From assembly GCA_030583665.1 (NCBI GenBank), contig CP129469.1, forward strand, positions 1,665,043 through 1,729,042: a stretch of 64,000 nt of DNA. Direction: 5' to 3'. This document shows, piece after piece, positions 38,248 to 42,131 of this stretch (the first letter of the stretch is position 1; each line of letters opens with the position of its first letter). The stretch is from Candidatus Jettenia sp. AMX2 (GTDB lineage: Bacteria; Planctomycetota; Brocadiia; Brocadiales; Brocadiaceae). The position numbers and the translations under genes were made by a program. The notes under the pieces were generated by a model. The model saw only the letters and a program-made list of their open reading frames with translations, made no database searches and was not told the DNA's origin.

Positions 38248-38490
38248 TTATGCTTTCTTTACCAGCAAACGATACGCACCCTGGAGGTTCTCTACGGTAA
38301 TAATTTTATGCCCTTCTTCCTTTAAACTACGGGGAACACTTCTCATTGGTTCACCGTCATCCAAAATAATTTCCAGAATCTGACCGGAATCCATCATATC
38401 CAGTTTCAACTTTGTCTTCACAAAATTAATGGGGCAAAGTACCCCCCTTAAATCAATATGCTCATCAGGGTTTGTACTTCCTTCTTCCAT
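38248..38490 (-). CDS. TusA/SirA-like sulfur carrier
   Basis: This 80-residue protein (ATG at 38490 with GGAG 8 bases upstream; the longer frame needs a TTG) has the TusA signature IDLRGVLCPINFVKTKLKL near the N-terminus, with the sulfur-carrying Cys. TusA proteins carry persulfide sulfur in the cytoplasm. It is the last gene of a minus-strand set with a JAMM protease, a CysM-like synthase, a DsrE-like protein and a sulfite-reductase-like protein. It may be the sulfur carrier of that set, because no ThiS/CysO-type protein with a Gly-Gly end is visible. Confidence 0.85.
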   Translation of the reverse strand: MEEGSTNPDEHIDLRGVLCPINFVKTKLKLDMMDSGQILEIILDDGEPMRSVPRSLKEEGHKIITVENLQGAYRLLVKKA

Positions 38491-38595
38491 AGAGAAAACT
38501 CCAAACAAGATGCATTCTGTTTATTTTTGGTTGTAAGTTCCGGTTTTCAGCCTAGATTTTCCCTAAAACGCTACCGGAGACTTCTTTTTTTGTTG

Positions 38596-39009
38596 TTATA
38601 TCCGTATTTCTTCTTCTTCAAACTGTTTTTTTACTTCATCAAACACCCATGAACGTGCCTCAATTTTCCTGCCTTTTTCTATAGCGATAATAATATAGGA
38701 ATAACCAGGCCATGCACGCTCGGTATCAAACGCCGAAGGAACCGGCGGGTGATCAGGGTGTGAATGATAGATCCCTATAATCTGTAAACCTTTTTTCCCT
38801 GCTTCCCTGTCCATACTAGCAAATTCTTTGCCATCTATTTCATACCGGTCATGGGTTCTTTCTGTGTTCTTATTTTGTGCGGGGTAAATTTCGATAACCC
38901 TCTTTTCCGGAATGTATTTACCTAACAGCAACCCGCAACATTCCAAAGGATAATTTTTTTTAACCTGCTCCTCTATCTCATGAAACTCATTTTTATTTAT
39001 AAATAACAA
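38596..39009 (-). CDS. JAMM/MPN+ metalloprotease (Mec-like)
   Basis: This 137-residue protein is a single JAB1/MPN+ domain. The zinc-site motif H-x-H-x7-S-x2-D is intact (HSHPDHPPVPSAFD), and a Glu suited to catalysis lies upstream near the ECCGLLLG segment. Bacterial members such as Mycobacterium Mec+ cleave cysteine or other adducts from ThiS-like sulfur carriers, and are encoded with a CysM-type synthase, as here. The start appears to be TTG (no in-frame ATG near), with GGAG 10 bases upstream. The substrate is uncertain because the expected carrier gene is not next to it. Confidence 0.82.
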   Translation of the reverse strand: MLFINKNEFHEIEEQVKKNYPLECCGLLLGKYIPEKRVIEIYPAQNKNTERTHDRYEIDGKEFASMDREAGKKGLQIIGIYHSHPDHPPVPSAFDTERAWPGYSYIIIAIEKGRKIEARSWVFDEVKKQFEEEEIRI

Positions 39010-39051
39010 TGCCGGAAAACTCCAAAGTCTCAGGAATAAGCATTCTTTATT

Positions 39052-39996
39052 TTATATACCCGCCCAAAAACTGGTACTCAGATACCGATCTCCCCTGTCG
39101 GGAAAGACCGTAACAATTACCCCTTTCTCAACTTCATGCGCAACCCTCAAGGATGCTACCAGTGCAGCTCCGGATGAATATCCCACAAAAATCCCTTCTT
39201 CGGCTGCGAGCTTTCTGACAGCTGCATAAGCATCTTCTGTATCAACCGCAATCTTCCTGTCCGGGAAAGACTCCTCATAGATACCAGGAACAACTGAAGT
39301 TGTCATATGTTTCATGCCTTCCAGTCCATGAATGGAAGTCGATGGCTCAACAGATATTACCTGAATACCGGGATTATATTCTTTTAGCCTTCTCCCGGTA
39401 CCCATGAGGGTGCCGCTGGTACCAAGACATGCAATAAAGTGGGTTATTTCACCTGCAGTCTGGTTCCATATCTCAACCCCCGTTGTTTCGTAATGCATCT
39501 GCCAGTTTGCAGGATTATTGTACTGATCAGCATAAAAGTATTTTGAAGGATCTTCTTCTACAATCCGCTTTGCCTCAAACATAGCACCATCTGAACCAAG
39601 CAATGGATCGGTAAATAGAATCTTTGCCCCAAAGGCACGTACGATCCTCTTCCGTTCCTCACTCACATTTAATGGCATCACTAAGGCTACTTTATACCCC
39701 TTTGTTGCACCAATAAGAGCATAAGCAATGCCCGTATTTCCTGAAGTTGAATCTATAATTGTTCTATCGTAGCTTAATTTCCCGGATTTTTCTGCCTCTT
39801 CTATAATCCTCAGTGCCGGACGGTCTTTTACTGAACCTCCGGGATTAAACCACTCTGCTTTGACATAAACCTCTACGTCTTTGTTTTTTAATCCTTCTGC
39901 AACTCTGTGGATTCTCAGCAAGGGGGTATTCCCGATTTTATCTAATACTGAGTTATCAGAAATGATTCCTGACAGGCATTTTGCATTATTTAACAC
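39052..39996 (-). CDS. Cysteine synthase, CysM-like (PLP enzyme)
   Basis: This 314-residue fold-type II PLP enzyme has the Schiff-base Lys in GGSVKDRPA, the phosphate-binding substrate loop STSGNTG, and the PLP-phosphate loop GTSGTLMGTG. GIFVGYSSGAAL and RYLSTSFW near the end resemble the CysO-dependent CysM of Mycobacterium more than standard CysK. It would make cysteine from O-acetyl- or O-phosphoserine with carrier-bound or free sulfide. The start is GTG without a clear ribosome site, so it may be a few codons off. It is adjacent to a JAMM protease, as in the CysM-CysO-Mec system. Confidence 0.85.
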   Translation of the reverse strand: MLNNAKCLSGIISDNSVLDKIGNTPLLRIHRVAEGLKNKDVEVYVKAEWFNPGGSVKDRPALRIIEEAEKSGKLSYDRTIIDSTSGNTGIAYALIGATKGYKVALVMPLNVSEERKRIVRAFGAKILFTDPLLGSDGAMFEAKRIVEEDPSKYFYADQYNNPANWQMHYETTGVEIWNQTAGEITHFIACLGTSGTLMGTGRRLKEYNPGIQVISVEPSTSIHGLEGMKHMTTSVVPGIYEESFPDRKIAVDTEDAYAAVRKLAAEEGIFVGYSSGAALVASLRVAHEVEKGVIVTVFPDRGDRYLSTSFWAGI

Positions 39997-40022
39997 GGTA
40001 TATTAAGAATTACTACCTTTCT

Positions 40023-40442
40023 TTATATGAACAATTGTGTTTCTGCACCATCTGCAATTTCCAGCAGCGTGGTTAACCCAACAATATCATCAACCCTGGC
40101 CCTGACCACAGAATCATCTAGTCCCATAAGTTTCACAGCCGTAGTACATGCATAAATCTTCAGGTTTCCCATCATTCTTACATCGTAAAGTATCTCTTTC
40201 AGTGATACCGGATGGACTTCCTGAATCTGTTTTAATAAGTTTTCACCTTTTTCACCGAACTCGGCAGGCAGTTTCTCCGGGTCAAAATCCTCATTTACAA
40301 ACTTCTTTAGCGCCCAAAAGAAGAGAAAGATATAGGTTTCCCTCCCCATAGAGGCCGCTGTTATCGCTAGTGTTATGATTTGATAAAGTCTGTCATACGT
40401 GCCGCTATGAGCAAAGATAACGAATTTTTTCCTGTTTCCCAT
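40023..40442 (-). CDS. DsrE-family sulfur-relay-like protein
   Basis: About 139 residues from the ATG at 40442 (GAGAAG upstream); a TTG five codons earlier would overlap the sulfite-reductase gene by four bases. The fold pattern (KFVIFAHSGTYDRLYQIITLAITAASMG) is that of DsrE/TusD-like proteins. A single conserved-looking Cys lies in LKIYACTTAVKLMG, where DsrE proteins carry the active Cys. These small proteins pass persulfide sulfur between partners such as TusA. It directly follows the sulfite-reductase-like gene, which supports a sulfur-transfer role. Confidence 0.75.
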   Translation of the reverse strand: MGNRKKFVIFAHSGTYDRLYQIITLAITAASMGRETYIFLFFWALKKFVNEDFDPEKLPAEFGEKGENLLKQIQEVHPVSLKEILYDVRMMGNLKIYACTTAVKLMGLDDSVVRARVDDIVGLTTLLEIADGAETQLFI

Positions 40443-40453
40443 AAAAGCACTTC

Positions 40454-41344
40454 TCAATCTTTTATAAAGGCATTTGCAACATCTTTTCTGAATTTATCCA
40501 GACCTACCCGGTCTATAGAAACACCTATCCTCTCTTTTTTCCTGCCATTTTCTTTATACCATTGTAAGGTCGCGGTGATAAAATCGTCTACTTTGCTGTC
40601 TGGCAGGAAGTTAACCACTTGATCAGCTTCCCTCGGATGGCGGCCATGCTTTCCACCAACACGCACCAGCCAGCCCTTTTTCTTGTCCTTCCAGGCGTCT
40701 GTAGGGCATGCCCTTATACAATCACCACAATATACACATTTGGATTCGTCAAATACCGGACGGCCTTCTTTGTCTGAAACAATTGCCCCTTCCAGACATG
40801 CCTTTGCACATAAGGTGCATCCATTACATAAATCCTTATTCCATACCGGGTAAACTACACCCTGAAACCCCAAATCCATTCCTCTTGTTCTTGAACAATC
40901 GATAGGACATCCTGAAAAACTCATTTTAAATTTATGATGGCAGGGTGAGCCAAAAAACTTCTCGTCAACCTCCAGCGATTTGGCCTGTGTATCCATAATC
41001 CCGTTGGGATTATACTCGCATCCCCCGCATGCAGTCGGAACCCTCACCCTCGGACCACAGGAAGCAACCTTTTGCCCCACGGCCGCCAACTCCTTTATTA
41101 CCACATCAAAATCATCAATATGGACGCCAATTATCTCAACCGATTGCCTGAAACTCAGATGACAATAACCCAACCTGCTATATTTCTTTGCAACCTCTGC
41201 AATCTTTATGAGTTTTTCAGGAGTGATTCTCCCGCCCGGCACCTTTAATCTCACGGTGAACAGATCTTTTTGGGTTTGTTTTATAAAACCACCGGACTTT
41301 AACTCATTCATATCAACTTTTTGTTTTACAGTCTCCTGAACCAT
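40454..41344 (-). CDS. AsrC-like sulfite/nitrite reductase with ferredoxin insert
   Basis: This 296-residue protein has one sirohaem reductase domain: an N-terminal ferrodoxin-like half (FTVRLKVPGGRI, then LSFRQSVEIIGV) and the sirohaem/[4Fe-4S] ligands in CGGCEYNP and SGCPIDCSR. A two-cluster ferredoxin domain follows (CNGCTLCAKACLEGA and CVYCGDCIRACP). This layout is that of AsrC, the catalytic subunit of anaerobic sulfite reductase, and related to DsrA/B. It probably reduces sulfite to sulfide, but nitrite reduction cannot be excluded in a nitrogen-cycling organism. The sirohaem synthase gene lies upstream and sulfur-transfer genes downstream. Confidence 0.82.
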   Translation of the reverse strand: MVQETVKQKVDMNELKSGGFIKQTQKDLFTVRLKVPGGRITPEKLIKIAEVAKKYSRLGYCHLSFRQSVEIIGVHIDDFDVVIKELAAVGQKVASCGPRVRVPTACGGCEYNPNGIMDTQAKSLEVDEKFFGSPCHHKFKMSFSGCPIDCSRTRGMDLGFQGVVYPVWNKDLCNGCTLCAKACLEGAIVSDKEGRPVFDESKCVYCGDCIRACPTDAWKDKKKGWLVRVGGKHGRHPREADQVVNFLPDSKVDDFITATLQWYKENGRKKERIGVSIDRVGLDKFRKDVANAFIKD

Positions 41345-41486
41345 TTATACTCCTGATATTTTTAATGTATTCGTCATATTTACAAGCACTTAACAAAACA
41401 ATTTATGGAATAAACATACCCAAGAATAATCTTAGCACTTCCCTAAATATCTTGCAAGAAAAAAGAAGTCTATAGGATTTGTGAAC

Positions 41487-42131
41487 TTATTTCTGACTTT
41501 TTGAGGATTTTTCGGAAATAATCTCCTCTATTTTCTTTTCTACCGCAACCGGCCCTTCTTCTTTGAGAATTTCAAGCATATCGGGGCCTGCAATACGCTG
41601 TAAAATATCACGCCTTACTGACTCATCCTTAATTTCACTGAGTACCTTTCGGCGTGTTTCTGCCAGAATTTTTGTAAATCCACCATACTCATTTCCAAAT
41701 TGTGTTTCCAAACGCTCACGGATGTTGCGCGCTAATGCTGGACTTGCACCACCTGTCGATATACAAATTGAAAGATCCCCCCGCATAATGGAAGAAGGTA
41801 CAATAAAAGAACAAAATTCCGGCCTGTCAACAACATTTACCAGCTGACCATTTTCAAGGGCGTCGTAATAAATAGTTTTATTAACTTCTTCATCATCGGT
41901 AGACGCAATAACCACAAATGCCCCGTTCAGAAATATTTTGTTATATTTCTGTCTGATTCGCTCAATTCCTTCTTCTTTCTCCAGTTCGGGGCAAAACTCA
42001 GGGGATATTACCGTTACCTTTGCTCCTGCATCCTTTAAACTACAAACCTTACGCCATGCAATATTCCCTCCCCCCACCACGACACATTTTCTGTTCTGTA
42101 TGTTAAGAAACATCGGATAATATTTTGCCAT
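41487..42131 (-). CDS. Precorrin-2 dehydrogenase / sirohydrochlorin ferrochelatase
   Basis: This 214-residue enzyme corresponds to the N-terminal half of CysG or yeast Met8. It starts with a Rossmann motif (VVVGGGNIAWRKVCSL) and continues with the family segments VNVVDRPEFCSFIVPS and ISTGGASPALARNIRERLE. It oxidises precorrin-2 and can insert iron to give sirohaem, the cofactor of the sulfite-reductase-like protein encoded 143 bases downstream. No methyltransferase (SUMT) domain is attached. GAGGGAAG precedes the ATG. Confidence 0.9.
   Translation of the reverse strand: MAKYYPMFLNIQNRKCVVVGGGNIAWRKVCSLKDAGAKVTVISPEFCPELEKEEGIERIRQKYNKIFLNGAFVVIASTDDEEVNKTIYYDALENGQLVNVVDRPEFCSFIVPSSIMRGDLSICISTGGASPALARNIRERLETQFGNEYGGFTKILAETRRKVLSEIKDESVRRDILQRIAGPDMLEILKEEGPVAVEKKIEEIISEKSSKSQK

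What the first reader, a model, noticed from the sequence alone, without database searches (positions are those of the whole stretch)
38248..42131. Possible sulfite-to-cysteine relay: JAMM protease and CysM without a CysO-type carrier
One strand carries sirohaem synthase, AsrC-like reductase, DsrE-like, CysM-like, JAMM protease and TusA-like genes. JAMM next to CysM recalls the Mycobacterium CysM-CysO-Mec route, which needs a ThiS-like carrier with a Gly-Gly end. None is visible; TusA and DsrE are the only carriers. Either the carrier is elsewhere, or TusA replaces it and the protease has a new target.
Basis: partly seen in the sequence, partly recalled or inferred. Interest (0 to 1): 0.6.

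Follow-up and report, generated by a model that had tools for sequence, protein, structure and literature searches.

The report
Split CysO–CysM–JAMM cysteine route
The sulfur-handling gene cluster in this anammox-type bacterium is not missing its ubiquitin-like carrier: the carrier gene sits elsewhere on the chromosome, with a variable tail that the cluster's JAMM protease probably cuts off.

Summary
The six genes are real and intact. The puzzle "JAMM and CysM but no carrier" has a plain answer. The same chromosome, 1.3 Mb away, encodes a close relative of M. tuberculosis CysO beside threonine synthase. Its conserved end, PAIAGG, is followed by seven extra residues. In 50 CysO genes of the order, PAIAGG never varies, but 42 carry tails of 1-24 residues in 33 different sequences. 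In the same set of genomes the thiamine carrier ThiS has no tail in 55 of 55. That is expected if a protease cuts CysO after Gly-Gly, and this JAMM is the genome's only clear candidate. In six other bacterial loci the sulfite reductase, TusA, CysO, CysM, JAMM and E1 genes lie in one run, and the window's CysM resembles those CysMs far more than its own CysK. So TusA and CysO are partners, not substitutes. Most likely route: sulfite, sulfide/persulfide, TusA, CysO thiocarboxylate, CysM, CysO-cysteine, JAMM, cysteine. Tail trimming and cysteine release are inferred, not measured. This is a new variant of a known kind: split genes, no rhodanese on the E1, drifting carrier tails.

The parts
41487..42131 (-). 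Sirohaem enzyme, CysG N-terminal type (precorrin-2 dehydrogenase/ferrochelatase part), 214 aa
   Evidence: TIGR01470 158 bits over its cut-off; PF13241, PF14824
40454..41344 (-). Small sirohaem sulfite reductase with two 4Fe-4S ferredoxin motifs, AsrC-like, 296 aa
   Evidence: PF01077, PF03460, Fer4; TIGR02912 128 bits, below cut-off 324
40023..40457 (-). DsrE2-like sulfur carrier/transferase, 144 aa, Cys104 invariant; overlaps the reductase gene by 4 bases
   Evidence: PF13686; C104 33 of 33 rows
39052..39996 (-). CysM-type cysteine synthase of the CysO-linked subgroup, 314 aa
   Evidence: TIGR01138 390.6 bits; 59-61% identity to its five best hits, CysMs of CysO loci, and 44% to own CysK
38596..39009 (-). 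JAMM (Prok-JAB) metalloprotease, 137 aa; proposed CysO tail-trimmer and CysO-cysteine hydrolase
   Evidence: PF14464 88.9 bits; E23/H82/H84/S92/D95 invariant in 40 of 40 rows; only strong Prok-JAB in the genome
38248..38508 (-). TusA, 86 aa, Cys25 in a CPxN motif; proposed persulfide donor
   Evidence: PF01206 75.6 bits; C25, P26, N28 invariant in 37 of 37 rows

Best explanation
The cluster is the larger part of a CysO-type (protein-thiocarboxylate) cysteine pathway whose carrier and E1 genes lie elsewhere on the chromosome. The sirohaem enzyme equips the small reductase, which reduces sulfite. The reduced sulfur passes via DsrE/TusA as persulfide. The MoeB-like E1 (C1:1436478-1437299) adenylates the C-terminal glycine of CysO (C1:407949-408242) and the sulfur is loaded as thiocarboxylate. 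CysM uses it on an activated serine to give CysO-cysteine. The JAMM then hydrolyses the Gly-Cys peptide bond, freeing cysteine and CysO. Cutting after Gly-Gly is also how the JAMM removes the encoded tail (KLMLKEF here) to mature CysO, which would explain why that tail is free to drift. Shown by sequence: the genes, their residues, co-occurrence, the bridging clusters, the tail drift. Inferred: every chemical step, TusA as donor, and cysteine as product.
For: CysO: best solved-structure hit is M. tuberculosis CysO 3dwg_C, E 4.6e-24, aligned over CysO's full length to Gly-Gly. Tails: 42 of 50 CysO in the order tailed, 33 distinct tails, PAIAGG 50 of 50; ThiS 0 of 55 tailed. One tail appears to come from a single stop-codon change: TGT in G031 where G029 and G030 have TGA. 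The JAMM is the only strong Prok-JAB in the genome; the second hit, at cut-off, is a 236-aa ORF that I read as RadC by eye and recall. Bridging: Asr, TusA, CysO, CysM, JAMM and E1 in one locus in 6 of 80; five of the six also hold ThrC, the neighbour of anammox CysO. In the 80 genomes, 76 have a strong JAMM, 50 bits or more. CysM subgroup: top 15 hits all lie in CysO loci, the first five at 59-61%. E1: 50 of 50 E1-like ORFs in the 67 CysO loci searched are nearer to E1a than to E1b. Outside the order, G066 has carrier (GGG then RGSN), E1, JAMM and a reductase-TusA fusion in a row. CysO also occurs with a NIL-sized extension directly after PAIAGG in 13 of 80 loci, Pfam-confirmed as NIL in the two tested; such a fusion needs a cut.
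Against: No biochemistry. Tails of similar kind occur in three genomes where no JAMM was found (L169, L191, L203); how complete these genomes are was not told. Four order genomes have JAMM without a full CysO hit: G007, G036 (99% complete), G041, and G039 (weak hit only). Family f3 has tailed CysO in only 1 of 6, although JAMM is present in 7 of 8 f3 genomes. In family f4 the cluster lacks CysM in 12 of 12 loci; a CysM-like gene of about 50% identity is elsewhere in most of them. The genome also holds a cysK gene next to a hexapeptide transferase that looks like serine acetyltransferase, so the CysO route is not the only possible source of cysteine. Relatedness of the genomes inflates all counts.
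Confidence: 0.76

Rival explanations
1. TusA (with DsrE) replaces the carrier, handing persulfide sulfur directly to CysM, and the JAMM has an unrelated target.
For: TusA and DsrE are the only carriers in the cluster. In family f4 the JAMM stays beside TusA although CysM is not in the cluster.
Against: A CysO gene is present in the genome. TusA and CysO are adjacent in intact clusters. TusA has no Gly-Gly end and no similarity to CysO. The CysM belongs with CysMs of CysO loci.
Confidence: 0.07
2. The JAMM is a deconjugating enzyme (desampylase-like) that removes CysO from modified proteins, and cysteine synthesis is secondary.
For: NCBIfam desampylase matches (76 bits, below its cut-off 130). 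CysO matches SAMP1 (52.8 against cut-off 60) and moaD_arch. In f4, 12 of 14 JAMM ORFs are 222-240 aa; the six that I read carry a hydrophobic C-terminal extension, and CysM is not in those clusters.
Against: Below the desampylase cut-off; tight linkage to sulfite reductase, TusA and sirohaem genes. No E2-like gene was looked for.
Confidence: 0.12
3. The ThrC-linked carrier is really a MoaD for molybdopterin, unrelated to this cluster.
For: It scores over the moaD_arch cut-off (52 against 49.5).
Against: No MoaE, the partner of MoaD, in this genome or in 67 of 68 genomes of the class. The best structural match is CysO, far ahead of MoaD-type entries.
Confidence: 0.05

Closest known systems
Mycobacterium tuberculosis CysM-CysO-Mec route with MoeZR (PMC3227635, passages read)
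   Same: CysO relative with Gly-Gly, CysM-type synthase, JAMM hydrolase, MoeB/MoeZ-like E1
   Different: Genes split over three places; E1 without rhodanese domain, with TusA in the cluster instead; CysO has a tail after Gly-Gly; linked to its own sulfite reductase and sirohaem gene
Iyer, Burroughs and Aravind 2006 operon class, Table 1 row 4e (PMC1779556, section 12 and passages read)
   Same: ThiS/MoaD-like protein, JAB, E1 lacking rhodanese, SirA/TusA and sulfite reductase for sulfur assimilation
   Different: In the window the carrier and E1 are absent from the cluster; a CysM is present (their cysteine synthase rows are 4c and 4d)
JAMM trimming of carrier tails or fusions: DRJAMM cutting MoaD-MoaE (PMC8832034, passages read); QbsD/QbsE and HcyD/HcyS (recalled, not read)
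   Same: A JAMM exposes the C-terminal glycine of a ubiquitin-like carrier
   Different: Here the tail has no fixed length or sequence across species; the carrier is CysO; the cut itself is inferred

Membership tests
CysO-CysM-Mec cysteine route | CysO-type carrier with C-terminal Gly-Gly core | tested here: met
   3dwg_C E 4.6e-24 to Gly-Gly; PAIAGG in 50 of 50 in the order
CysO-CysM-Mec cysteine route | Gly-Gly is the encoded C-terminus | tested here: not met
   KLMLKEF follows it in this genome; the gene product would need trimming
CysO-CysM-Mec cysteine route | JAMM hydrolase with intact metal site | tested here: met
   E23, H82, H84, S92, D95 invariant in 40 of 40 rows
CysO-CysM-Mec cysteine route | CysM-type synthase with the PLP lysine | tested here: met
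   PALP, K57 25 of 25 rows; TIGR01138 390.6 against 394.2, marginally below
CysO-CysM-Mec cysteine route | CysM uses CysO thiocarboxylate (and O-phosphoserine) | not testable with these tools
   needs enzymology; only subgroup resemblance shown
CysO-CysM-Mec cysteine route | cysO, cysM and mec gene linkage | tested here: not met
   cysO 1.3 Mb away; 30 of 80 other CysO loci hold both CysM and JAMM
CysO-CysM-Mec cysteine route | E1 with fused rhodanese (MoeZR) | tested here: not met
   E1a has ThiF domain only, 274 aa
Iyer row 4e sulfur-assimilation operon | Carrier, JAB, E1 without rhodanese, SirA/TusA and sulfite reductase in one neighbourhood | tested here: not met
   JAB, TusA and reductase in the cluster; carrier and E1 elsewhere; met in 6 of 80 relatives
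AsrC (TIGR02912) | score above equivalog cut-off | tested here: not met
   128.3 against 324.1
Desampylase (NF041370) | score above equivalog cut-off | tested here: not met
   76.3 against 130

The most novel reading that the evidence does not exclude
In anammox-type bacteria CysO with its E1 and its lone JAMM is a shared thiocarboxylate or protein-modifier hub, not only a cysteine carrier. The hints: the genome keeps a separate cysK with a cysE-like gene, the Scalindua-type family drops CysM from the cluster while most of its JAMMs gain a hydrophobic (possibly membrane-anchoring) extension, and no MoaE is found in 56 of 57 genomes of the order, so another user of CysO thiocarboxylate is conceivable.
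Probability: 0.12. Interest if true: 0.7.

Novelty: new variant of a known kind. Interest (0 to 1): 0.36.

Why it matters
It resolves an apparent exception to a known pathway and gives a concrete assignment of six window genes plus two distant ones in a group with little genetics. The comparison of CysO tails with ThiS ends in the same genomes is a natural experiment on JAMM processing: presence of a protease seems to free a carrier's C-terminus from selection. If it holds, a variable tail after Gly-Gly can be used to predict JAMM-dependent carriers from sequence alone.

Tried and rejected
Rejected: an apparent TusA-JAMM fusion in L078 is a run of N. The long JAMM ORFs of family f4 are not carrier fusions but hydrophobic C-terminal extensions (six read; no transmembrane predictor was run). 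A second CysO hit in G029 (L128) is a fragment inside a longer ORF and was not counted. The second Prok-JAB in the genome (L006) I read as RadC by eye and recall. A MoaD role for the carrier is unlikely without MoaE. No Rfam family in the window; no informative inverted repeat in 37-44 kb. Literature: the searches listed no paper whose title or shown abstract treats CysO or JAMM in anammox bacteria; nothing beyond these searches is claimed. The library held neither Burns 2005 nor Krishnamoorthy and Begley 2011.

Dropped rows: the tail count uses 50 of 53 CysO loci fetched; L124 (G059, outside the order, tailless, no JAMM found), L128 (fragment) and L129 (cut at contig end) were left out. The JAMM neighbourhoods use 40 loci, against 57 genomes with a match. 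Only the best 80 of 569 CysO-like stretches were kept by the scan, so all counts on 80 concern the closest relatives. Loci L126, L127 and L276-L285 were fetched but not analysed.
Full report
OBSERVATION. The spacing is short: 142 bases between the sirohaem gene and the reductase, a 4-base overlap of reductase and DsrE, then 26, 42 and 87 bases, so one operon is plausible. lysA lies upstream (TIGR01048) and argH beyond it (named from its sequence, not scanned); a Rieske gene lies downstream. The whole-genome search places the window at C1:1665043-1729042 of a single 3.46 Mb contig and finds no ThiS-family gene in the window.

THE CARRIER. That search gives two ThiS-family genes. One, C1:371168-371365, ends FVGGG and lies next to an ORF that I read as thiG: the thiamine carrier. 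The other, C1:407949-408242, lies behind a threonine synthase gene (TIGR00260 over cut-off). Its best match among solved structures is M. tuberculosis CysO, 3dwg_C, 87.8 bits, over its full length to the Gly-Gly; the next is a ThiS/MoaD protein, 4n6e_B (I recall it as the Amycolatopsis carrier). So a CysO-type carrier exists, about 1.3 Mb from the cluster. Two E1-like genes exist. E1a, C1:1436478-1437299, has only a ThiF domain; E1b lies beside a cysteine desulfurase gene. All 50 E1-like ORFs found in the 67 CysO loci searched in other bacteria are nearer to E1a.

THE TAIL. The encoded carrier does not end at Gly-Gly but goes on with KLMLKEF. In 50 CysO genes from the order (28 f1, 2 f2, 6 f3, 14 f4), PAIAGG is invariant, and 42 have a tail of 1 to 24 residues, with 33 different tails; by family the tailed fraction is 26/28, 1/2, 1/6 and 14/14. 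The nucleotides past Gly-Gly look like drifting sequence: in one genus one species has TGT where two have the stop TGA, giving a three-residue tail. The control is the thiamine carrier ThiS in the same set of genomes: 55 of 55 end at FVGGG with nothing after (two order genomes had no ThiS hit). Carriers that are used as encoded keep their end; CysO does not need to. The simplest reason is that something cuts it after Gly-Gly, and the window's JAMM is the only strong Prok-JAB protein in the genome. Its glutamate, HxH, serine and aspartate of the JAMM motif are invariant in 40 of 40 rows. Outside this order, one CysO-like gene in a genome with no JAMM hit ends exactly at Gly-Gly (G059). JAMM cutting of a MoaD-MoaE fusion to expose a C-terminal glycine is published (PMC8832034, passages).

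LINKAGE IN RELATIVES. In 68 genomes of the class, JAMM is found in 57 and CysO in 53, the latter with two weak, partial hits among them. Within the order of 57, no genome has CysO without JAMM; G010 and G046 lack both; G007, G036 and G041 have JAMM without CysO, and G039 has only a weak CysO hit. In the order, beside the window, the cluster keeps TusA near JAMM in 37 of 38 loci and the reductase in 35 of 38; CysM is in 24, absent from all 12 f4 loci and from L059 and L082 (my count). CysO remains beside threonine synthase in all but a few. A scan of GTDB genomes with the CysO alignment kept the best 80 of 569 relatives. In six of them reductase, TusA, CysO, CysM, JAMM and E1 lie in one locus, and in five of these threonine synthase leads the row (L154, L164, L167, L187, L204; L177 begins inside the reductase gene). 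This arrangement joins both anammox loci and the lone E1, so the three places in our genome are most simply a split version. Over all 80, JAMM is in the locus in 31, CysM in 58 (this label includes CysK-like ORFs), E1 in 51 and TusA in 26; a strong JAMM is somewhere in 76 of 80 genomes. Of 69 CysM/K-like ORFs in 67 CysO loci, 35 are nearer to the window's CysM and 34 to the genome's CysK, so CysO is not always paired with a CysM of this subgroup; but the window's CysM is 59-61% identical to its five best hits, all in CysO loci, and 44% to its own CysK.

Outside the order but in the same class, G066 has carrier, E1, JAMM and a sulfite reductase fused to TusA in a row, and its carrier too has a tail (GGG then RGSN); G067 shows part of the same row. 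In 13 of 80 loci CysO has a C-terminal extension of NIL size directly after PAIAGG; Pfam confirms NIL in the two tested. In L154, L164 and L204 a separate ORF of similar sequence follows cysO. A fused carrier cannot work without a cut.

MECHANISM. Best reading: sulfite is reduced by the sirohaem reductase; sulfur moves through DsrE/TusA; E1a activates the trimmed CysO and the sulfur is loaded as thiocarboxylate; CysM makes CysO-cysteine; the JAMM hydrolyses it. TusA in place of a rhodanese domain agrees with Iyer et al. 2006, who noted that such gene groups have an E1 without rhodanese but always a SirA protein (PMC1779556, section 12). The M. tuberculosis steps are as summarised in PMC3227635 (passages). 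Trimming and cysteine release would be the same reaction, hydrolysis after Gly-Gly. The genome also has a cysK gene next to a hexapeptide-transferase gene that looks like cysE, so the CysO route is probably parallel; when it is used is unknown.

AGAINST. Three tailed CysO genes lie in genomes without a detected JAMM (L169, L191, L203). Family f3 has mostly tailless CysO with JAMM present, so a JAMM does not force a tail. Some order genomes have JAMM and no CysO. Many genomes are incomplete, and the counts are not corrected for relatedness.

VERDICT. It is a new variant of the CysO-type route. What is worth keeping is the tail comparison and the split gene set.

Noticed in passing
whole genome G000 and class genomes: No MoaE (PF02391) in this genome nor in 67 of 68 class genomes, 56 of 57 in the order, while 11 of 14 control genomes have it. 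Anammox nitrite oxidoreductase is, from recall, a molybdopterin enzyme, so how its cofactor is made is open. Other Moco genes were not searched.
   Followed up: partly
L060-L063, L066-L071: In the Scalindua-type family 12 of 14 JAMM ORFs are 222-240 aa; the six read have a hydrophobic C-terminal extension that may anchor the protease to a membrane.
   Followed up: partly
L155, L156, L168, L172, L175, L176, L179, L183, L194, L200, L208, L210, L216: CysO with a NIL-sized C-terminal extension right after PAIAGG (13 of 80 by size; NIL confirmed in L155 and L200); a separate NIL-like ORF follows cysO in L154, L164 and L204. NIL/ferredoxin proteins are needed for homocysteine synthesis in Desulfovibrio (PMC5764234, passages).
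   Followed up: partly
L004 (C1:1536365-1537099 and flanks): A second E1-like gene lies beside a cysteine desulfurase gene and a CGCAxxGCC-like ORF (named by eye), possibly a separate sulfur-transfer unit.
   Followed up: no
window 38248-38508: TusA of this cluster has CPxN instead of the usual CPxP (CPxP recalled); C25, P26 and N28 are invariant in 37 of 37 rows.
   Followed up: no
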